From NCBI GenBank assembly GCA_020349865.1, contig CP070700.1, positions 4,264,093 through 4,270,860 on the forward strand: a DNA stretch of 6,768 nucleotides, written 5' to 3'. Position 1 is the first letter of the stretch. Every line of letters begins with the position of its first letter. A program made the translations under genes and the position numbers. The notes under the pieces were generated by a model. It was not told where the DNA came from. It saw only the letters and a list, made by a program, of their open reading frames with translations, and did not search any database. Positions 364 to 6,261 of this stretch are shown piece by piece. This DNA comes from Desulfobacteraceae bacterium. Lineage in GTDB: Bacteria > Desulfobacterota > DSM-4660 > Desulfatiglandales > Desulfatiglandaceae.

Positions 364-1215
364 TCAGGTGGAGCCAACCAGTTGCTCATGTGGAGTCTCT
401 TCTTCATCCAGTATGTGGGTCTCCACAGCTTTCTCCTGTGCTAAAGACGCCAGTGCATTTTCTTGAAGCTTTTTTTGAGCAAGAAACAATGCGCCTTTTG
501 TAACGGGAGAACTGTTAAAACCGGTATCCGCAACGAGTTCTATATCCACAAAGCCGGCTTGCTTAAACATTGCCAGGAAATCCTTTCCCGGTATCGCTCC
601 CCCTTCTCACCTGAACCAGTTTTCAATCCTTGCCTTGGTATCCGCTGGTAACTGCCCTGTCAGGATCTGATCGGCTATCATGAGGCATCCACTGGGCCTC
701 AGGACCCTGAACGCCTCTGCCAGGGCCCTCGTTTTGTCAGGGATGAGGTTAAAGACGCCATTGGAGATAACCATGTCGAAGCTTTCATCTGGAAAAGGCA
801 AATTCTCGGCAGAGGTCAGCTGGAAGGTGACATTGTTAAAAGTCGTCTCGCACAGATTCACTTTGGCACGTTCAAGCATTTCTGGAATCATGTCAATGCC
901 CACTGCCTTTCCTTCAGGACCTACCATGCTGGCAGCAATAAATGTGTCTACACCGGCGCCACACCCAATATCCAAAACCGCCTCTCCCTCCCGAATAGAC
1001 GTTAGAGTGAAAGGGTTTCCTACTCCGCAGTACGAGGCCACGATATTATCGGTTAAGGCTTCGATCTTTTCTGCGTCGTAAGCCAATGCTTCGAGGCCTG
1101 CACGCCCAGTTGGGTAATTAAAATGGCCTTCAGGACTTGAAGCGACCTTAGTGTATTTTTGCCGTATACTTTGCTCAATCCGTTTTTTGTCCTCAGGTGC
1201 TAACTTAAATTCCAT
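364..1215 (-). CDS. ArsM-like SAM-dependent methyltransferase, selenoprotein (Sec203)
   Basis: Class I methyltransferase related to arsenite S-adenosylmethyltransferase. The gene is 283 aa when the in-frame TGA at 609-607 is read as Sec203; without readthrough it looks like two fragments, 1215-607 and 570-364. SAM-binding motif I, VLDIGCGAG, is at about residues 80-88; the acidic motif II is GIDM at about 106-109; SFDMVISNGVFNL is at about 145-157. CGVGNP near residue 63 matches the ArsM Cys-Gly-x-Gly-Asn-Pro region. Sec lies in WFR-U-EGGAIPG, where ArsM proteins have a conserved metalloid-binding cysteine before an AGA/GGA turn. The sequence after the TGA, AGFVDIELVADTGFNSSPV, is a typical continuation of this family. 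The ATG at 1215 is chosen because GGGGAGG lies 5 nt upstream. The gene ends in TGA, with another TGA two codons later. It follows the Cys thioredoxin gene by 75 nt. The substrate could be As(III) or another thiophilic element. Confidence 0.87.
573..609 (-). promoter_or_regulatory. SECIS-like hairpin after the methyltransferase UGA
   Basis: The UGA is at 609-607. After 15 nt comes an 8-bp stem, CCGGGAAA paired with TTTCCUGG (one G-U), with a GGA loop at 583-581. The loop G lies about 24 nt past the UGA, within the range known for bacterial SECIS elements, which sit in the coding region just downstream of UGA with G in a small apical loop bound by SelB. Confidence 0.7.
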
Positions 1216-1220
1216 GGTTA

Positions 1221-1227
1221 CCTCCCC
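1221..1227 (-). promoter_or_regulatory. Ribosome-binding site fixing the methyltransferase start
   Basis: GGGGAGG on the minus strand, 5 nt before the ATG at 1215. It favours this start over the upstream in-frame ATG at 1242, which would place the Shine-Dalgarno sequence inside the coding region. Confidence 0.75.
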
Positions 1228-1290
1228 TTTTAGGACATGCAAAGAGTAGAACCTTTTTAGTGCTACATTATTGTTAGAAAGGTGCTCCCT

Positions 1291-1593
1291 TTAAACCTTG
1301 AAAGCCCCTCGAACAGCCTCTGACAGTGCTTCAAAGTCAGGGATATGATCAAATGCTATTTTTTCGTTGATGACAATAGAGGGTACTGCCAACCTGCGGC
1401 CGCACAGTTTAGTCAATTCATCAAACCTTCGCAGTCCTTCACGGGCGCCTACGTCCACCACATCCCATTCTAATATTCCTCCATCAAATTCAGGGGCAAT
1501 CTCTTCCAAAATTCCTATCGCTAAGTCGCAAAGCATGCAGCCCTTCTTCTTGGCAATGATTTCTACAAACACCTTTTGACAGTGCTCTTTCAT
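1291..1593 (-). CDS. Thioredoxin-like protein, Cys form (CMLC)
   Basis: A 100-aa thioredoxin-fold protein. Cys19-Met-Leu-Cys22 is the redox motif after the first beta strand, and AVPSI with Pro71 is the cis-proline loop facing it. It shares REGLRRFDEL near residue 51 with the protein at 3732-4025 (REGIQRFKEL) and IEGAIRYNEL with the one at 4991-5293. It is therefore the cysteine paralogue of two selenoproteins in this window. The start at 1593 has GGAGG 4 nt upstream. A longer frame reaching 1725 runs through a MITE-like insertion and is not the native protein. It probably acts in the cytosol as a disulfide reductase; no signal peptide is visible. It lies upstream of the methyltransferase and may supply reducing equivalents to it (inference). 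Confidence 0.85.
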   Translation of the reverse strand: MKEHCQKVFVEIIAKKKGCMLCDLAIGILEEIAPEFDGGILEWDVVDVGAREGLRRFDELTKLCGRRLAVPSIVINEKIAFDHIPDFEALSEAVRGAFKV

Positions 1594-1597
1594 TTGG

Positions 1598-1602
1598 CCT
1601 CC
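1598..1602 (-). promoter_or_regulatory. Ribosome-binding site overlapping a target-site duplication
   Basis: GGAGG lies 4 nt before the ATG at 1593. Its first three bases belong to the 8-bp duplication created by the adjacent mobile element, so the insertion left the Shine-Dalgarno sequence intact but replaced everything upstream of it. Confidence 0.65.
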
Positions 1603-1607
1603 AAATT
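1600..1607. repeat. Target-site duplication, left copy
   Basis: TCCAAATT directly abuts the left terminal inverted repeat of the MITE-like element and is repeated exactly at 1801-1808. Confidence 0.85.
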
Positions 1608-1800
1608 GGTTCATCCGGTTAATGAGTACCGCGAAACTGATCAGATATGAAGTTGGCAGAGGGGAAGGTCGAAGCAGTCTTTTCTTCGATTCCGGGCTTC
1701 TCAGCCTGGTGATTTCAGCAGTCACTACGAAAAGACCGCTTCAACCTTCAACCCCGCAACCATGTGTTGTGTTGAGGCGTACTCATTAACCGGATGAACC
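1608..1800. mobile_element. 193-bp MITE-like element with 22-bp terminal inverted repeats
   Basis: The ends are perfect 22-bp inverted repeats, GGTTCATCC...GAGTAC at 1608-1629 and its complement at 1779-1800. They are flanked by identical 8-bp direct repeats, TCCAAATT. A second nested inverted pair at 1664-1684 and 1729-1749 matches at 19 of 21 positions with nearly the same centre, so the whole element can fold into a long imperfect hairpin. It encodes no transposase and is presumably moved in trans. An 8-bp duplication is known from several IS families (for example ISL3, IS1595 and IS66); I cannot assign the family from the ends alone. It is inserted 14 nt upstream of the Cys thioredoxin start codon and may have displaced or replaced its promoter. 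Confidence 0.88.
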
Positions 1801-1855
1801 TCCAAATTGAAGCTTGGTGCCATTTCCGAGAGATTAGTTCATCCTCGGTCCTCAT
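1748..1855 (-). CDS. Possible 35-codon ORF interrupted by the MITE (doubtful)
   Basis: ATG at 1855 has a well-spaced Shine-Dalgarno sequence (GGAG at 1866-1863, 7 nt away). The frame reads MRTEDELISRKWHQASIW, then crosses into the MITE and stops at TGA 1750-1748. Without the insertion the frame would overlap the start of the thioredoxin gene in another frame. It could be a leader peptide, a gene remnant or chance. I recognise no family. Confidence 0.2.
   Translation of the reverse strand: MRTEDELISRKWHQASIWRFIRLMSTPQHNTWLRG
1801..1808. repeat. Target-site duplication, right copy
   Basis: TCCAAATT directly follows the right terminal inverted repeat and is identical to 1600-1607 in the same orientation. 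Confidence 0.85.
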
Positions 1856-1875
1856 CAATATTCTCCTTTACTCTT

Positions 1876-1973
1876 GATGAGTTGGTAACAGTTTAGCTGT
1901 TTTAAAATAGTGCAAAAAGGGAGATACTCTAATGATGATTTTTTCAAAGCGCTAAACTGTTATCAAACTCGAT
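1876..1973. repeat. Imperfect inverted repeat B (TTTAGC-core arms)
   Basis: TAACAGTTTAGC at 1886-1897 is perfectly repeated in inverse at 1951-1962. The match extends imperfectly outward (GATGAGTTGG against GATCGAGTTTGA) and inward (TTTTAAAA against TTTGAAAA). The arms resemble those of the repeat at 238-323, so these are two copies of one repeat family. It begins about 58 nt past the DsrE-like gene stop. It could be a MITE-like remnant or a transcript-end structure; no clear target duplication or T-tract was seen. Confidence 0.55.
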
Positions 1974-2030
1974 CAGGGTCTGCTTTATTTTTCCCCTCTT
2001 TATCAGAGGTTATGGGAAATCGATGCAGAT

Positions 2031-2381
2031 TTAGAAGTTGAAAACCTTCGCCTTAGCAGCGAGATCAATTAAATGTGGAGCTCCGTCAAGGGCCATATTG
2101 GAAAAAAATTTCGCCTCGTCAACCTGACGAGCGTTAGCACAAGGCGGTCAAACTCCAATGGGGACTTCATTTTCTTCCAAATAGGGGAAATAATCGTTAG
2201 GGCAATCTCCAGTATCACTCTTAGCGTTAAAATCACGTGTAGAATCCGCCCATAGGACACCATCATCGATGAAAAATAGATTCACCAAATGCCCTTTTGA
2301 GTGTGTAATCTTGGCGAATTGAAAACACCTTGTTGCTGCATTAACATCTCCTTTGCTTAAAATGAACACGAAACTCGCCAT
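2031..2381 (-). CDS. DsrE-family sulfur-relay protein, selenoprotein (Sec78, UPPC)
   Basis: A 116-aa DsrE/DsrF-like protein when TGA 2150-2148 is read as Sec78. The N-terminus FVFILSKGDVNAATRCFQFA and the following HLVNLFFIDDGVLW are typical of the DsrE fold, whose members bind persulfide sulfur on a cysteine or act as small redox partners. The motif GV-U-PPC-ANAR (residues 76-85) corresponds to the family's C-x-P-C-A-x-A-R motif with its first Cys replaced by Sec. After the TGA the frame continues for 38 codons of DsrE-like sequence to TAA at 2033-2031. The ATG at 2381 is chosen for the AGGAGG 6 nt upstream; the earlier ATG at 2402 lies before that site. It is the last gene of the 5293-2031 operon, 62 nt after the HMA-SMC gene. 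The sulfur or selenium carried is unknown. Confidence 0.88.
2115..2150 (-). promoter_or_regulatory. SECIS-like hairpin after the DsrE-family UGA
   Basis: The UGA is at 2150-2148. After 16 nt comes a perfect 6-bp stem, CUCGUC paired with GACGAG, with the loop AGGUU at 2125-2121. The loop GG lies 24-25 nt past the UGA, matching bacterial SECIS geometry closely. Confidence 0.78.
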
Positions 2382-2387
2382 AAGAAG

Positions 2388-2393
2388 CCTCCT
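2388..2393 (-). promoter_or_regulatory. Ribosome-binding site fixing the DsrE-family start
   Basis: AGGAGG on the minus strand, 6 nt before the ATG at 2381. It decides against the in-frame ATG at 2402. Confidence 0.8.
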
Positions 2394-2443
2394 TTCTTCC
2401 ATATTGTCAGTAAAATTAGGATCTCAACTTACTAAACATTACC

Positions 2444-3709
2444 TTAGCAGCATTTATAGAGTCTCAGAAGGCGCTCGTCCATCACAAAGTAGAACTTCAT
2501 GAAGGAAGAGCCATCCCATCGTGTTCTCACTCCGTGGACAGTGTTTGCAAGTTGTATGGTGCTTCGCAAGTGGGTGATTATGATGAGTTGTTTCTTTAAG
2601 GCGAGAGTCCTGAGAAGGGCCTGCATGGACTTATGGTTTGTGTAATCCAAGGAGGGTTCCACTTCATCGAGCAAATAAAAAGGACTGTCCAATTGTTCGA
2701 AGATGGCCAATTTTAAGGCAAGACTGGTGACGGATTTCTCTCCACCGGAGAGCTGGTGAGATTTGCGTTTTCTGTTCCCCGGTAAAGTAACCTCTATTTC
2801 TAAGCCCTTTCGACCATTCTGCTCAAGAACCTTCAACTCCCCCTCCCCTAATGGAAACAAGAATTCCAGATATTTACGGAAAAGGGGATCTATATCCCCC
2901 TGAATACTCTGGGCTAAATCTTCTGTTCCATTGAAAGACAGTAGATTCTCAACCCAATGAAAACGCTGCCAGGGGTCCAATAATATCATGTCGTTGATCT
3001 GTTCCTGCCTGATAATGGACTTCAGGGCATGGGGAGCCTTCAAGTTTATTAACTCCTGGAGATATTCTTCTCTTTCAAGGCGTTCATCTTTGACCCAGTA
3101 ATCATCTTGCCCATCCTTTGTCATATCTCTAACCAGTCGTACTGCCGGTGCCTTCTTTTCCTTGCCCCTCTTAAAAATCAATTCGACCCGAATTTGTGAC
3201 GCGGGAGGATAATTCTTACTGCCAGAGAAGAATAACTCTCCTTTCTCATAACAACGGAGCCTGGTGAGATCATCCTCACCGAGGGTCCAAACGATAGCAT
3301 CCAGTATGTTCGATTTCCCAACCCCGTTATTTCCTATAATGACTCCAATACCGGGTTGGAAGCCCATATTCGTCAGCTCTGAGAATGATTTGAACCCTTG
3401 AATATTCACATCTTCCAGATACAAGCTGCTCGATTTATCCATTTTAACCTCTTGCGAAGAATCAATCAGTTTTGCCTGATAATTCATCCCTCTATTTTTC
3501 CCAGCGGCTGCCACTTCACGGAAAATCTTGTCAATAGAGGTCTTTTGTGATTCATATTCCAGATGAAATCTATGTGATTCATCATTATAAACGATCACTT
3601 TTATGCCAGGAAGCCCCTCCAGGGCTTGAACCAAGCTCGGGGGTCATGATCTTCAAAGTATACCCCCGGGCACCTCGATCCTGAACTCAATCTTTTTCAG
3701 TTCTTCCAT
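2444..3709 (-). CDS. HMA domain (UxxU) fused to an SMC/RecN-like ATPase head, double selenoprotein
   Basis: A 421-aa protein with TGA at 3655-3653 (Sec19) and 3646-3644 (Sec22). Residues 1 to about 75 form a heavy-metal-associated (MerP/CopZ-type) domain: strand KKIEFRIEVPGG, then U-RS-U where this family has CxxC, then helix SLVQALEGLPG, strand IKVIVYND, and IDKIFREVAAAG. From about residue 95 an SMC-type ATPase follows: FKSF, Walker A GNNGVGKSN (126-134), a Q-loop near RQEQI (about 234-238), signature LSGGEK (320-325), Walker B FYLLDEVEPSLD (344-355) and switch His in IIITH (376-380). Little sequence separates the two half-heads, so the long coiled-coil arms of SMC proteins are missing. The ATG at 3709 has AGAGG 6 nt upstream; without Sec readthrough the gene appears to start at TTG 3634. 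The C-terminus ends in CysCys. It lies 22 nt after the second thioredoxin-like selenoprotein. Metal-gated ATPase activity is inference. Confidence 0.85.
3611..3646 (-). promoter_or_regulatory. SECIS-like hairpin for the second HMA UGA
   Basis: The UGA is at 3646-3644. After 16 nt comes a perfect 6-bp stem, AAGCCC paired with GGGCUU, with the 5-nt loop UGGAG at 3621-3617. This is the same geometry as the DsrE-family hairpin. It shares bases with the hairpin assigned to the first UGA, so the two cannot form together. Confidence 0.65.
3624..3655 (-). promoter_or_regulatory. SECIS-like hairpin for the first HMA UGA
   Basis: The UGA is at 3655-3653. After 16 nt comes a 5-bp stem, GCUUG paired with CAAGC, with a GUU loop at 3631-3629, so the loop G lies 22 nt past the UGA. 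The 3' half overlaps the stem of the hairpin serving the second UGA, implying alternative folding as the ribosome advances. Confidence 0.5.
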
Positions 3710-3731
3710 GTTTTTCCTCTGCTCAATGGCC

Positions 3732-4025
3732 TTAGGTCTCATTCTTTAATTGGTGCCGACGACGAATCTCATCGCACAGCTCTTCCTGCATGGGGATGAT
3801 GGCCTCATAGACAAGCTCTTCATCCAATGCGACACTGGGGAGGGATTTGGCCTTAAGCTCCTTAAAACGCTGAATCCCTTCCCGCGTGCGCATGTCCCAT
3901 TCTTGCACTTCAATAAGACCTTTAATATCCTCCGGTAAGACCCTCACCGATTCCGCCATATAGACGCAGGCCAGTCATTGATTGAAATCAGTTAAAAGCA
4001 CATCCACAACGACCTTTTGCGTCAT
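3732..4025 (-). CDS. Thioredoxin-like selenoprotein (Sec17, ULAC)
   Basis: A 97-aa thioredoxin-fold protein when TGA 3977-3975 is read as Sec17. The first strand is KVVVDVLLTDF, followed by Q-U-LAC-VYMAESV, a CxxC-type active site with its first Cys replaced by Sec. SLPSV with Pro63 is the cis-proline loop, and REGIQRFKEL is shared with the Cys paralogue at 1291-1593. The ATG at 4025 has GGGAGG 5 nt upstream, whereas the fragment after the TGA has no such site. It lies 16 nt after the TSCPD gene and 22 nt before the HMA-SMC gene, so it is almost certainly co-transcribed with them. It is a likely cytosolic redox partner or selenol carrier; the substrate is unknown. The C-terminal tail (residues 78-97) is rich in charged residues and contains one further Cys. 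Confidence 0.86.
3933..3977 (-). promoter_or_regulatory. SECIS-like hairpin after the ULAC UGA
   Basis: The UGA is at 3977-3975. A 7-bp stem, CGGUGAG paired with CUUACCG (one G-U), has a GGU loop at 3942-3940, 33-35 nt past the UGA. This is further away than in the other genes but still within the known bacterial range. No better hairpin was seen closer. Confidence 0.5.
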
Positions 4026-4041
4026 ACTATCCTCCCTTCAA

Positions 4042-5028
4042 CTATTCCACCCTCAAGATATTAAAGTCAATCTCTCCACCGTTTACTTCCAAGAGCCCCC
4101 AGGTCAAACCCTTATCACTCAAAGCAGGCCCTATGCTAATAAAATCTATCCTTCCTATCTGCCACCGGACCCATCTCTTTATCTGGCTGAAGAGGATTAC
4201 CTGGGCGCTGAACTGAGGTACCATGGCTTCCAGGGCTGGAAACACTGTTTCATCCTGCAAAAATTGCGTCAGATCGCAGACCATGTTCATTTCTAAGGCA
4301 AAAGGCTCGAAATCAGAAAAATCGGGAAGATCACGTACATACTTCCCAAAAAAAGCCATGCCTTTCTTTTCCCCTAACTGGAACGATAGGACCTGGGGAA
4401 GACGGACCAGGTAGTCCCTTTCCTTTTGATTGAGGCAGGGGAAACCTGTGGGCTCTTGTCCATTTGCATACCTGAAGTCCAGTTCTCCCTGAATGGCTAA
4501 AATTTCTTCCTTGCGCATTCGCTTGATCAGATCCTCATTTTCCGCAGAATTCCCTGTCATGTCTCCAAGAGAGTATATAATCTCTACTTCCTCTTTACGG
4601 ATATTTTCAATAAGCCCTTGCAGGAGTTCACTGTGTCCTCCCAGGTCGCCAATCAGGCCAATACGCTTCCTGGGCTCGGGATCTGAATAAACCTTAAATG
4701 ATCGGGCAGGCTCAAGGCTACCATCCATGGTGGCTTTCAGGGCTTTAGCCAACTGATCCGGACATGACGTGCCATTCCTGCAAGTAATTTCCCCAATGAG
4801 TTCCAATACATCATTTACCGGTCTGTCCTGCAAAAATCGGCTTACTAACTGGGCATTGCCCGGGCATCCCCCGCCCACGAATCGCACCTCTTTAACTTCG
4901 TCTCCTTGAATCTGGAAATGGATTTCCGGGGGACAGACGCTTTGGGTAGGATAAACATAGCGAAGAATTTTTTCATCGGGTTTCAATTTATCAATCCTTT
5001 CCAGCAGCATCGGCGATGTATCTTTCAA
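4042..5028 (-). CDS. TSCPD domain fused to a degraded metallophosphoesterase-like domain
   Basis: A 328-aa two-domain protein. Residues about 20-105 match the small four-cysteine TSCPD family: Cys32, Cys55 (GGGCPGN), Cys83 and Cys89 in GTSCPDQLAKAL, probably a metal site, related to a region of class II ribonucleotide reductases. Residues about 122-328 resemble YfcE/MJ0936-type phosphoesterases: IGLIGDLGGH (123-132), YSLGDMTGN (152-160), QGELD (180-184) and a final strand pattern GLLEVNGGEI. The usual GN(H/C)D/E is GELD here, and the usual GHTH near residue 281 is SQIK, so several metal ligands are lost and catalysis is doubtful. The start is uncertain: TTG at 5028, with AGAGGG 4 nt upstream, overlaps the preceding gene by 38 nt; ATG at 5010 is the alternative. 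There is no in-frame TGA. It sits between two thioredoxin-like selenoprotein genes. Confidence 0.82.
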   Translation of the reverse strand: MKDTSPMLLERIDKLKPDEKILRYVYPTQSVCPPEIHFQIQGDEVKEVRFVGGGCPGNAQLVSRFLQDRPVNDVLELIGEITCRNGTSCPDQLAKALKATMDGSLEPARSFKVYSDPEPRKRIGLIGDLGGHSELLQGLIENIRKEEVEIIYSLGDMTGNSAENEDLIKRMRKEEILAIQGELDFRYANGQEPTGFPCLNQKERDYLVRLPQVLSFQLGEKKGMAFFGKYVRDLPDFSDFEPFALEMNMVCDLTQFLQDETVFPALEAMVPQFSAQVILFSQIKRWVRWQIGRIDFISIGPALSDKGLTWGLLEVNGGEIDFNILRVE

Positions 5029-5293
5029 GAAACCCTCTTAGTTCCTCCTGACCAGGCGTCTGATCAAATACCAAATCACCATCGATAAATATGGACGGAA
5101 CCGGGGCAGGTCTTCCAAGTTTTTTCGAAAGCTCATTATAGCGTATTGCACCTTCAATTTTAGTGGTGATTGATTTTTCATACTTTATGGCATCGCCAAA
5201 CTCCGGAGCCACTGCTTCGACCACCCTGGCCATGTATTCACAGGGGATTCAGTGTTGCCCTTCGTGCAGGAGTTCCAAATGAATCGTTTTCAT
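4991..5293 (-). CDS. Thioredoxin-like selenoprotein (Sec15, UIPC)
   Basis: A 100-aa thioredoxin-fold protein when TGA 5251-5249 is read as Sec15. MKTIHLELLHEGQH is followed by U-IPC-EYMARVVEAV, a UxxC active site preceding the first helix. PVPSIFI with Pro66 is the cis-proline loop, and IEGAIRYNEL is the segment shared with the two paralogues in this window. The ATG at 5293 has GGAGGGAGG 6 nt upstream. Without readthrough the gene is truncated to 5233-4991 with no ribosome-binding site. It is the first gene of the operon, and its end overlaps or abuts the TSCPD gene. Its true stop is TGA immediately followed by TAA. The predicted role is cytosolic thiol/selenol oxidoreductase; the partner is unknown. 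Confidence 0.88.
5218..5251 (-). promoter_or_regulatory. SECIS-like hairpin after the UIPC UGA
   Basis: The UGA is at 5251-5249. After 16 nt comes a short 5-bp stem, UGGCC paired with GGUCG (including two G-U pairs), with the loop AGGGU at 5227-5223. Spacing and loop match the DsrE-family and HMA hairpins, but the stem is weak. Confidence 0.5.
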
Positions 5294-5448: not shown

Positions 5449-5471
5449 AAAATCGTCCAAAGGACGATTTT
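5449..5471. terminator. Hairpin terminator after the YkgJ-like gene
   Basis: A perfect 10-bp stem, AAAATCGTCC paired with GGACGATTTT, with a 3-nt loop, lies 40 nt past the YkgJ-like stop. On the minus strand it ends in TTTT and would end that transcript. The plus strand has the longer T-run (TTTTTT), so it may work in both directions. It separates the YkgJ-like gene from the selenoprotein operon. Confidence 0.65.
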
Positions 5472-5511: not shown

Positions 5512-6261
5512 TTAGGGAGAGCGGATTGTATCAGGCGATACCTTTTCGAGTGTTTCTTGAAGGCGCGTGTTGGTTCCCTTTTGTACCATTTCCTTGATCA
5601 CTGCGAACTTCAGGAGGAGCGCTTTTCTCATTCCCAAAAACAGCGAGGCCAGAAAAAAACTGAAATCAGAATGGTATTCTTCTTCGAAGCGGGTTTGAAG
5701 ATCGCCCAGAGATTTCCCAAGGTCGTAGACATTTTTCAGCAACTCCATGATCATGGTGTCATTAATGGTCTTTCCTGACTGAATCTGAACCTTGTCGCAG
5801 TAATCAATCTCAAATTCCACTATGTCTGAAGGGATTTCCACGCCGTATCTTTTCCACATCTGCCTTAGGGCCTTTTTACCATTGCGGCTCTCCCGTGTCC
5901 GCATCCATCCCATTTCCTGACTCCACAAGCCATAGGAACGGCATCCGAATGTTCGGTATCGGTAAATGGTGCAGACGCCGTCTTCCTTAAATGGACAGCC
6001 AGAAAGACGAGCAGGATTGGTCATATAAAATTCCACGAATCTTCTGAGTTTGGCGGATAATTCGGAATCGGACATGGTCTGCATAAGTTTGATCCATTGC
6101 AAGGCTTCGAGTACGGTCATTTCGGGCAAGAACGTGCAACAGACCCCTGGTTGATCACACGTGCAGTTCGTCCCGGGCAGGCGGTCATAGAGTTCCTGAA
6201 GCCGAAGTAAAAGAGGCTCTGCAGCGAGCATGGCTTCTTTAATTTCATCCGCGGTTATCAT
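5512..6261 (-). CDS. YkgJ-type zinc/iron-chelating cysteine-cluster protein
   Basis: A 249-aa protein of the YkgJ family. The cysteine cluster is Cys33-x-Cys35, Cys41-Cys42, Cys89 in GCPFKEDGVC (Cys97), then IYRYRTFGCRSYG (Cys107). This is the family's CPFL-G-C-IY-RP-CR pattern, with Thr104 where the family usually has Pro. The cluster is thought to bind a metal or Fe-S cofactor; the biochemical role of the family is not settled. The C-terminal part (about 165-249) is helical and not recognised. The ATG at 6261 has AGAGG 7 nt upstream. It lies 64 nt after the unknown gene and is cut off from the selenoprotein operon by the hairpin at 5449-5471, so the functional link is uncertain. Confidence 0.85.
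   Translation of the reverse strand: MITADEIKEAMLAAEPLLLRLQELYDRLPGTNCTCDQPGVCCTFLPEMTVLEALQWIKLMQTMSDSELSAKLRRFVEFYMTNPARLSGCPFKEDGVCTIYRYRTFGCRSYGLWSQEMGWMRTRESRNGKKALRQMWKRYGVEIPSDIVEFEIDYCDKVQIQSGKTINDTMIMELLKNVYDLGKSLGDLQTRFEEEYHSDFSFFLASLFLGMRKALLLKFAVIKEMVQKGTNTRLQETLEKVSPDTIRSP

What the first reader, a model, noticed from the sequence alone, without database searches (positions are those of the whole stretch)
364..5293. Selenoprotein island: five genes, six in-frame UGA codons in about 5 kb
Seen: translating through TGA at 609-607, 2150-2148, 3655-3653, 3646-3644, 3977-3975 and 5251-5249 joins each short frame to an upstream start with a good Shine-Dalgarno sequence, or to a clear family C-terminus. 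Known: every site is where the family has a redox or metal/metalloid-binding Cys. Inference: these are Sec codons, not nonsense mutations, because frames stay intact on both sides and the neighbouring genes (TSCPD, YkgJ, Cys thioredoxin) contain no internal TGA. So many Sec genes in one operon-like block is exceptional, and standard annotation would show truncated or missing genes.
Basis: partly seen in the sequence, partly recalled or inferred. Interest (0 to 1): 0.93.

Follow-up and report, generated by a model that had tools for sequence, protein, structure and literature searches.

The report
Selenoprotein gene island with new families
Five neighbouring bacterial genes carry six stop-like UGA codons, each followed by a hairpin and placed where related proteins have cysteine, so the cell likely inserts the selenium amino acid selenocysteine there; two of the five proteins are of kinds that we did not find in current selenoprotein catalogues.

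Summary
Selenocysteine (Sec) decoding is strongly supported. All six have a GGN-loop hairpin 22, 23 or 32 bases downstream, against 1 of 281 other TGAs in the window and 96 of 29,537 in fetched loci. Relatives keep TGA: 34 of 34 ULAC orthologues, 23 of 30 DsrE, 26 of 30 ArsM and 18 of 23 HUIPC loci read, the rest being Cys. The window's genome is not held; of 33 relatives with the block, SelB was found in 27 and tRNA-Sec in 29. HUIPC, DsrE and ArsM selenoproteins are known kinds. The ULAC family, and a UxxU metal-binding-like domain fused to an SMC-head ATPase, are not in the 119-family review table as far as I read it, nor over cut-off in NCBIfam 20.0. The UxxU codons could not be checked in relatives' DNA. 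Relatives place the block beside corrinoid methyl-transfer genes, so a selenol/thiol reducing arm for such a system is my inferred role (about 35%). Larger selenoprotein operons are already described.

The parts
4991..5293 (-). HUIPC thioredoxin-like selenoprotein gene; internal TGA at 5251-5249 (motif HUIPC), terminal stop also TGA
   Evidence: NF047660 149 bits, cut-off 105; TGA in 18 and Cys in 5 of 23 loci; codons
5218..5232 (-). hairpin TGGCCA-GGG-TGGTCG, loop 22 nt after the TGA
   Evidence: at least 5 of 6 pairs in 22 of 22 TGA homologues and 2 of 6 Cys homologues
4042..5028 (-). TSCPD domain plus metallophosphoesterase-like protein, no internal TGA
   Evidence: TIGR03905 70.7 of 67.7 bits; PF12637 over and PF12850 below cut-off; TTG start as called
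3732..4025 (-). ULAC thioredoxin-like selenoprotein gene (name mine); internal TGA at 3977-3975
   Evidence: TGA in 34 of 34 distinct orthologues, Cys in 16 of 16 paralogues; thioredoxin fold by model
3932..3950 (-). hairpin TCGGTGAG-GGT-CTTACCGG, loop 32 nt after the TGA
   Evidence: at least 6 of 7 pairs in 33 of 34 TGA orthologues and 0 of 16 Cys paralogues
2444..3709 (-). fusion of a UxxU HMA-like domain (about residues 1-85) to an SMC-head ATPase ending Cys-Cys; TGA at 3655-3653 and 3646-3644
   Evidence: PF02463 151.3 of 40 bits; SMC head 5h68 E 2.8e-27; HMA below cut-off; domain order by model; Cys-Cys end invariant in 46 rows
3611..3627 (-). hairpin AAGCCCT-GGA-GGGGCTT, loop 23 nt after the second TGA and 32 nt after the first
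2031..2381 (-). DsrE-like selenoprotein gene; TGA at 2150-2148 (UPPC)
   Evidence: PF02635 66 of 22.7 bits; 23 TGA and 7 Cys in 30 loci; aligns with a Cys of 2hy5
2115..2131 (-). hairpin CTCGTCA-GGT-TGACGAG, loop 23 nt after the TGA
   Evidence: at least 6 of 7 pairs in 24 of 26 TGA and 1 of 7 Cys homologues
364..1215 (-). ArsM-like methyltransferase selenoprotein gene; TGA at 609-607, terminal stop also TGA
   Evidence: best NCBIfam matches are ArsM selenoprotein fusions, below their cut-offs; site aligns with Cys of 5evj and 5eg5; 26 TGA and 4 Cys in 30 loci
573..591 (-). hairpin CCGGGAAA-GGA-TTTCCTGG, loop 23 nt after the TGA
   Evidence: at least 7 of 8 pairs in 22 of 22 TGA homologues
1291..1593 (-). 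Cys thioredoxin-like protein (CMLC), no internal TGA
   Evidence: NF047660 60.3 bits, below cut-off 105
5512..6261 (-). YkgJ-like CxxCxxCC protein, conserved neighbour in relatives
   Evidence: PF03692 E 0.0097, below cut-off; matched in 13 of 34 loci

Best explanation
The six in-frame UGA codons of these five genes are predicted to be read as selenocysteine by SelB and tRNA-Sec, each directed by a GGN-loop hairpin that lies 22, 23 or 32 bases downstream, one hairpin lying in range of both UGAs of the UxxU motif. Shown by the calls: the codons, the hairpins, their conservation in four of the five genes, and Cys at the same place in homologues. Inferred: decoding in this organism, since its genome is not held. 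Role (inferred, about 35%): the two Sec thioredoxin-like proteins would take electrons from a thioredoxin reductase and keep thiol, selenol and metal(loid) sites reduced for a corrinoid-dependent methyl-transfer system that lies beside them in relatives; the SMC-head ATPase, with its UxxU domain and Cys-Cys tail, would be an ATP-driven client or carrier, and ArsM and DsrE would handle methylated or sulfur-bound species. The confidence given is for the decoding claim.
For: Codons and frames. Hairpins by the published model 5 of 6 against 30 of 281 other TGAs; simpler GGN form 6 of 6 against 1 of 281 and 96 of 29,537. TGA conserved: ULAC 17 of 17 loci, 34 of 34 distinct sequences; DsrE 23, ArsM 26, HUIPC 18 of 30, 30 and 23 loci, the rest Cys. 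Hairpin goes with TGA: ULAC 33 of 34 against 0 of 16 Cys paralogues, DsrE 24 of 26 against 1 of 7, HUIPC 22 of 22 against 2 of 6, ArsM 22 of 22. Cys in solved homologues. SelB in 14 of 18 and tRNA-Sec in 16 of 18, then SelB in 13 of 15 and tRNA-Sec in 13 of 15. TGA is also a normal stop in HUIPC, ArsM and ORF9. Role: neighbours.
Against: No protein-level evidence. Own genome not held. The UxxU codons are seen in the window alone: no fusion was found in 213 genomes of one order or 85 of another group, and its N-terminal domain is below the HMA and NF041115 cut-offs. The window's ULAC site failed the published model at -7.5 kcal/mol, as did 15 of 33 other ULAC orthologues. The HUIPC hairpin in strict GGN form is in 4 of 9 and 0 of 18 TGA homologues, and Cys homologues still pair 4.2 of 6 on average against 5.1. 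One ArsM relative has Gly at the site. G176 has the block but neither SelB nor tRNA-Sec was found. For the role: the window itself shows no corrinoid gene.
Confidence: 0.94

Rival explanations
1. The TGAs are nonsense mutations or assembly errors in decaying genes, and only truncated proteins are made.
For: Protein sets list many ULAC homologues as 71-83 aa fragments that start after the site.
Against: The same codon is TGA in 34 of 34 ULAC orthologues and in most DsrE, ArsM and HUIPC homologues, with the frames open on both sides and hairpins kept.
Confidence: 0.02
2. TGA is reassigned to Trp or another residue throughout the genome.
For: 14 of 20 ULAC database proteins that I fetched have Trp at the site, which looks like translation with code 4 (inference).
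Against: TGA ends HUIPC, ArsM and ORF9 in the same window; homologues have Cys, not Trp; tRNA-Sec and SelB are common in relatives.
Confidence: 0.01
3. Sec decoding is real but the genes share no pathway; they lie together because this lineage uses Sec in many thiol proteins.
For: SelB is near-universal in the order sampled, 178 of 213. DsrE and ArsM selenoproteins occur in many genomes of that order away from the block.
Against: TSCPD, ULAC and ATPase stay together in most loci mapped, and DsrE with the Cys thioredoxin-like gene also in L074 and L075.
Confidence: 0.35
4. The block is a metalloid or metal detoxification set (arsenic, selenium or mercury), not a helper of methyl transfer.
For: ArsM with Sec at the Cys position of solved arsenite methyltransferases; nearest NCBIfam models of the UxxU domain are a UxxU metal-binding selenoprotein, MerTP and CopZ; an MTH895/ArsE-family thioredoxin lies beside the block in L012.
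Against: No arsenate reductase, arsenite pump or ArsR family appears in the family lists for the window's proteins (lists of two proteins were capped at 25). An ArsM-like match lies near the block only in L019 and L074 among the loci mapped.
Confidence: 0.2

Closest known systems
HUIPC motif thioredoxin-like (seleno)protein, NCBIfam NF047660
   Same: The window's HUIPC protein scores 149 bits against a cut-off of 105.
   Different: ULAC (41.5 bits) and the Cys thioredoxin-like protein (60.3 bits) are below the cut-off; ULAC is a distant kin with its own motif and its own Cys paralogue family.
Arsenite methyltransferase selenoproteins (NF008823, NF041536, NF041537)
   Same: Best profile matches; UxxG at the site (U-EGG), as in the review table.
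   Different: Below every cut-off (209.4 of 263, 389.3 of 575, 394.7 of 510); lacks the fused DUF2284 or AhpD domain of the last two.
DsrE-like selenoprotein (PF02635, UxxC)
   Same: PF02635 66 of 22.7 bits; UPPC motif.
   Different: Nothing notable; a member of a known kind.
UxxU metal-binding (seleno)protein, NF041115
   Same: UxxU motif; best NCBIfam match of the N-terminal domain, E 2.4e-4.
   Different: 21.2 of 95 bits; here joined to an SMC-head ATPase.
LULAXC motif selenoprotein TsoA, NF045695, and the Tso operon
   Same: A ULA-C-like motif; several selenoprotein genes together (review table and section 9).
   Different: No TsoA match for ULAC at E 0.1; a TsoX match to HUIPC is 14.3 of 52 bits.
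SAO (Sec-assisted organometallic) operon
   Same: Many selenoprotein genes in one block (review section 9).
   Different: No Sao family among the NCBIfam matches of the window's proteins.
Type I mlp gene clusters (corrinoid methyltransferase sets tied to selenium, PMC10418091)
   Same: Relatives of the block adjoin MtaA-like, corrinoid, MtrH and RACo genes.
   Different: That paper's main text has no occurrence of CobW, TSCPD or MtrH; membership of these clusters was not tested.

Membership tests
bacterial selenoprotein gene | in-frame UGA with conserved frame on both sides | tested here: met
   6 codons in 5 genes; conserved in relatives for four genes
bacterial selenoprotein gene | Cys in homologues at the UGA position | tested here: met
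   DsrE 7 of 30, ArsM 4 of 30, HUIPC 5 of 23 loci; ULAC in paralogues only; UxxU by weak alignments, 20 of 20
bacterial selenoprotein gene | SECIS-like hairpin in range | tested here: met
   published model 5 of 6, GGN form 6 of 6
bacterial selenoprotein gene | SelB and tRNA-Sec in the same genome | tested here: inconclusive
   own genome not held; relatives 27 and 29 of 33
bacterial selenoprotein gene | selenium found in the protein | not testable with these tools
   needs 75Se labelling or mass spectrometry
HUIPC NF047660 (window 4991-5293) | profile over curated cut-off | tested here: met
   149 of 105 bits
HUIPC NF047660 (ULAC, window 3732-4025) | profile over curated cut-off | tested here: not met
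   41.5 of 105 bits; relatives 47.9 and 46.1
TsoA NF045695 (ULAC) | profile match | tested here: not met
   no match at E 0.1
arsenite methyltransferase NF008823 | profile over curated cut-off | tested here: not met
   209.4 of 263 bits
DsrE PF02635 | profile over curated cut-off | tested here: met
   66 of 22.7 bits
HMA PF00403 / UxxU NF041115 | profile over curated cut-off | tested here: not met
   16.8 of 24.8 and 21.2 of 95 bits; works-like claim rests on fold order and UxxU placement
SMC-type ATPase head | SMC_N profile and SMC-head fold | tested here: met
   151.3 of 40 bits; 5h68_B E 2.8e-27, TM 0.84 on the target
full-length bacterial SMC (TIGR02168) | profile over curated cut-off | tested here: not met
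   193.7 of 567.35 bits; 432 aa frame
type I mlp gene cluster | Mlp, corrinoid and activase genes of that set | not tested
   only similar gene kinds in relatives

The most novel reading that the evidence does not exclude
A selenocysteine-dependent, ATP-driven machine for metal(loid) and methyl-group handling: an SMC-head ATPase carrying a diselenol UxxU metal-binding domain and a Cys-Cys tail, kept reduced by two Sec thioredoxins (one of an all-Sec family not yet catalogued), serving a corrinoid methyltransferase island in Desulfobacterota, with one SECIS hairpin decoding two UGAs.
Probability: 0.25. Interest if true: 0.85.

Novelty: new variant of a known kind. Interest (0 to 1): 0.63.

Why it matters
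It adds what appears to be an uncatalogued selenoprotein family (ULAC): every orthologue whose site I could read has TGA, and the database proteins that I fetched are cut short or carry a probably wrong Trp or Arg there. It adds an architecture in which a UxxU domain is joined to an SMC-head ATPase. It ties selenoproteins to corrinoid methyl transfer in Desulfobacterota, which can be tested directly. It also gives a natural test of bacterial SECIS rules: one loop type at 22-23 or 32 nt, hairpins kept with TGA and mostly lost with Cys, and one hairpin placed for two UGAs.

Tried and rejected
Nonsense mutation and TGA=Trp were considered and rejected (see rivals). An SbcCD/Mre11-Rad50-like pair (SMC-head ATPase beside a metallophosphoesterase) was considered: Foldseek ranks SMC heads first and the first Rad50 at rank 34, and the phosphoesterase match is below cut-off, so it is not claimed. 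A search with the HMA-like part in the protein set gave nothing; in genomes it gave only weak matches to long frames of 481-910 aa that look like P-type ATPases by size and CxxC (not tested further). The TSCPD protein has no solved relative by sequence at E 0.1. Rfam gave one sub-threshold miRNA-family match; no tRNA in the window. The promoter and terminator scan found no more than shuffles do. SelB as a discriminating marker failed because it is near-universal in the order sampled, 178 of 213.

Rows dropped before counts: only the loci kept for the 30 best DsrE places and for 30 of the 31 ArsM places were read, and all 23 for HUIPC. The ULAC place G011:C113 was left out because its match begins after the site; L014 has no ULAC because its contig starts inside the ATPase gene. 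The ULAC count of 34 is of distinct 63-base sequences that fit a residue pattern. The L017 Cys HUIPC protein was dropped after one search failed. Part 3 of 3 of section 7 of the review was not read.
Full report
What is there. The nine genes considered all read on the minus strand. In order of transcription: ORF9 (6751-6326), a YkgJ-like protein (6261-5512), HUIPC thioredoxin-like (5293-4991), TSCPD-metallophosphoesterase-like (5028-4042), ULAC thioredoxin-like (4025-3732; the name is mine), an HMA-like/SMC-head ATPase fusion (3709-2444), DsrE-like (2381-2031), a Cys thioredoxin-like protein (1593-1291) and an ArsM-like methyltransferase (1215-364). HUIPC overlaps TSCPD, and the next gaps are 16, 22 and 62 nt, so HUIPC to DsrE looks like one transcription unit (inference). 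The window lies in a Desulfobacterota genome by inference: its own ATPase (P0003) and an 80% identical protein named 'Desulfobacteraceae bacterium' (P0025) show the same longest contig, 4,985,782 bases. No whole genome is held.

Is it Sec? Three lines agree. First, hairpins. By the constraints of the bacterial SECIS model printed in PMC13188914 (section 5, read whole), as I coded them, 5 of 6 sites have a fitting hairpin, against 30 of 281 other TGA trinucleotides of the window. A simpler form (three-base loop starting GG, at least 6 pairs, at most 2 G-U, loop 16-37 nt after the TGA) is met by 6 of 6, by 1 of 281 others in the window, and by 96 of 29,537 in loci L001-L031 and L074-L093. I set this form after seeing the hairpins, so it is post hoc; some of the 96 may be real Sec sites. 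Distances are 23 (ArsM), 23 (DsrE), 22 (HUIPC), 32 (ULAC), and 32 and 23 for the two UGAs of the fusion, which share one hairpin.

Second, conservation. ULAC has TGA in 17 of 17 loci and in 34 of 34 distinct sequences, while a paralogue family (motif SVQCAACGYM, about 45% identical) has Cys in 16 of 16. In 213 genomes of one order, the 26 places at 66% identity or more all have TGA. Of the loci read, DsrE had 23 TGA and 7 Cys, ArsM 26 and 4, HUIPC 18 and 5. A further ArsM, in L074, has Gly (GGA). The Sec of ArsM aligns with a Cys in solved ArsM structures 5evj and 5eg5 (that this Cys binds arsenite is recalled), and that of DsrE with a Cys of 2hy5.

Third, hairpin and codon go together. At the loop position of the window's hairpin, all or all but one pair form in 33 of 34 ULAC with TGA against 0 of 16 Cys paralogues, in 24 of 26 DsrE against 1 of 7, in 22 of 22 HUIPC against 2 of 6, and in 22 of 22 ArsM. 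The Gly ArsM keeps its hairpin, 8 of 8, as if changed recently or by an error. Mean pairs are 6.7 of 7, 6.4 of 7, 5.1 of 6 and 7.7 of 8; shifted by 3 or 6 bases they fall to 2.0-3.6, 1.0-1.7, 1.9-3.4 and 1.2-4.2. HUIPC is the weak case: Cys homologues still pair 4.2 of 6, only 11 of 22 TGA sequences have a GG loop, and the strict GGN form is found in 4 of 9 and 0 of 18. In ULAC 95.8% of cells pair, against 19.7-52.5% when slid by 1-3 columns, with an A-U to G-C change in 6 sequences at one pair; the count of pairs with two-sided changes and the count of pair types are not above shuffles. Codons are frozen there: Val-27 GTA in 33 of 34, Leu-30 TTA in 30 of 34.

Machinery. In the 18 genomes of loci L001-L018, SelB is over its cut-off in 14 and tRNA-Sec in 16. 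In 15 further genomes with a TGA-bearing ULAC place, tRNA-Sec is found in 13 and SelB in 13 (11 of 13, 2 of 2). That makes 27 and 29 of 33; G176 has neither. SelB is common anyway in the order sampled (178 of 213).

The fusion is the least secure part. No relative's DNA with it was found: only weak matches in 213 genomes of one order, and in 85 genomes of another group the four ATPase matches begin at residue 85 or later. The N-terminal domain scores below the HMA and NF041115 cut-offs, although NF041115, itself a UxxU metal-binding selenoprotein family, is its best NCBIfam match and the model gives the beta-alpha-beta-beta-alpha-beta order. UxxU aligns with CxxC in 20 of 20 alignments, from 17 loci, that cover both places (25 loci searched; Cys in the query favours this). 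The ATPase part is an SMC head with an invariant Cys-Cys end in 46 of 46 rows. ULAC has a thioredoxin fold by model (mean pLDDT 80.8, under 50 at residues 15-17 around the Sec; best PDB match thioredoxin m, E 1.3e-4).

Novelty. The review PMC13188914 says that it covers 119 families; in its Table 1 (section 7, parts 1 and 2 of 3 read) I found HUIPC, ArsM, DsrE-like and the UxxU metal-binding protein but no entry for ULAC or for an HMA-ATPase fusion. NCBIfam 20.0 has no model over cut-off for ULAC or for the HMA-like domain. Literature searches listed no paper whose title or shown abstract describes them. The deep-Sep paper (PMC12013277, passages) says that its method may miss selenoproteins that lack Cys homologues, which would fit ULAC (inference). 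Haft and Tolstoy 2025, cited for HUIPC, is not held, so it may hold more. A six-gene SAO operon is already described (passage), so the gene number is not a record.

Role. In relatives the block sits among corrinoid methyl-transfer genes: CobW in 25, UroD/MtaA in 17, MtrH in 15, corrinoid protein in 10, thioredoxin reductase in 8 and RACo in 5 of 34 loci, against 0, 0, 0, 0, 1 and 0 of 20 evenly placed 20-kb stretches of two of the genomes. The profiles were built from the test loci, which favours them, the loci are related to each other, and in the 21 long loci thioredoxin reductase (6 of 21) and RACo (3 of 21) are not significant (P 0.05 and 0.12). In L011 (Desulfococcaceae bacterium HSG9) one co-directional run reads MtrH, MtaA-like, corrinoid protein, RACo, an unnamed gene, MtaA-like, the Cys paralogue of ULAC, CobW, thioredoxin-reductase-like, HUIPC (TGA), a Cys kin of HUIPC, ULAC (TGA), ATPase. 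From this I infer electron flow from thioredoxin reductase to the Sec thioredoxins in the service of methyl transfer. Type I mlp clusters, corrinoid methyltransferase sets tied to selenium, are a known parallel (PMC10418091, passages). The window itself shows no corrinoid gene, so this is argued from relatives.

Verdict. Sec decoding: about 0.94. The corrinoid-linked role: about 0.35.

Noticed in passing
window 1600-1808: MITE-like element at 1608-1800: 39-nt imperfect terminal inverted repeats (79%), flanked by an 8-bp direct repeat TCCAAATT (1600-1607 and 1801-1808), just upstream of the Cys thioredoxin-like gene. Its repeat arm was found in none of the loci fetched by then.
   Followed up: partly
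window 1882-1966: Second inverted repeat, 26-nt arms, 85% complementary, 33 nt apart.
   Followed up: no
window 5449-5471: Palindrome AAAATCGTCC-AAA-GGACGATTTT between the YkgJ-like and HUIPC genes; a similar one lies between the same genes in L001 (seen by eye). Possibly a terminator, though one search did not list it.
   Followed up: no
P0025: An 80% identical paralogue of the ATPase shows the same longest contig length as the window's own protein, so the genome may hold a second copy of this system.
   Followed up: no
P0122-P0142, 20 ULAC proteins fetched: 14 of 20 have Trp and one Arg at the Sec place, 5 begin after it: probable translation with code 4 and truncation in public protein sets.
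   Followed up: partly
L074:5569-6408 (-): ArsM homologue with Gly (GGA) in place of Sec, hairpin fully kept; recent loss or sequence error.
   Followed up: partly
L174, L175, L177, L179: A second, more distant ArsM-like group (36-39% identical) has TGA in the motif TG-U-IAGG with a GGA-loop hairpin at 17 nt.
   Followed up: no
L076:10682-11401 (+): The YkgJ-like gene of this relative matches across two stops, perhaps a pseudogene or a sequence error.
   Followed up: no
L226-L237: Where HUIPC lies apart from ULAC, CobW and UroD/MtaA genes are each near it in 8 of 12 loci.
   Followed up: partly
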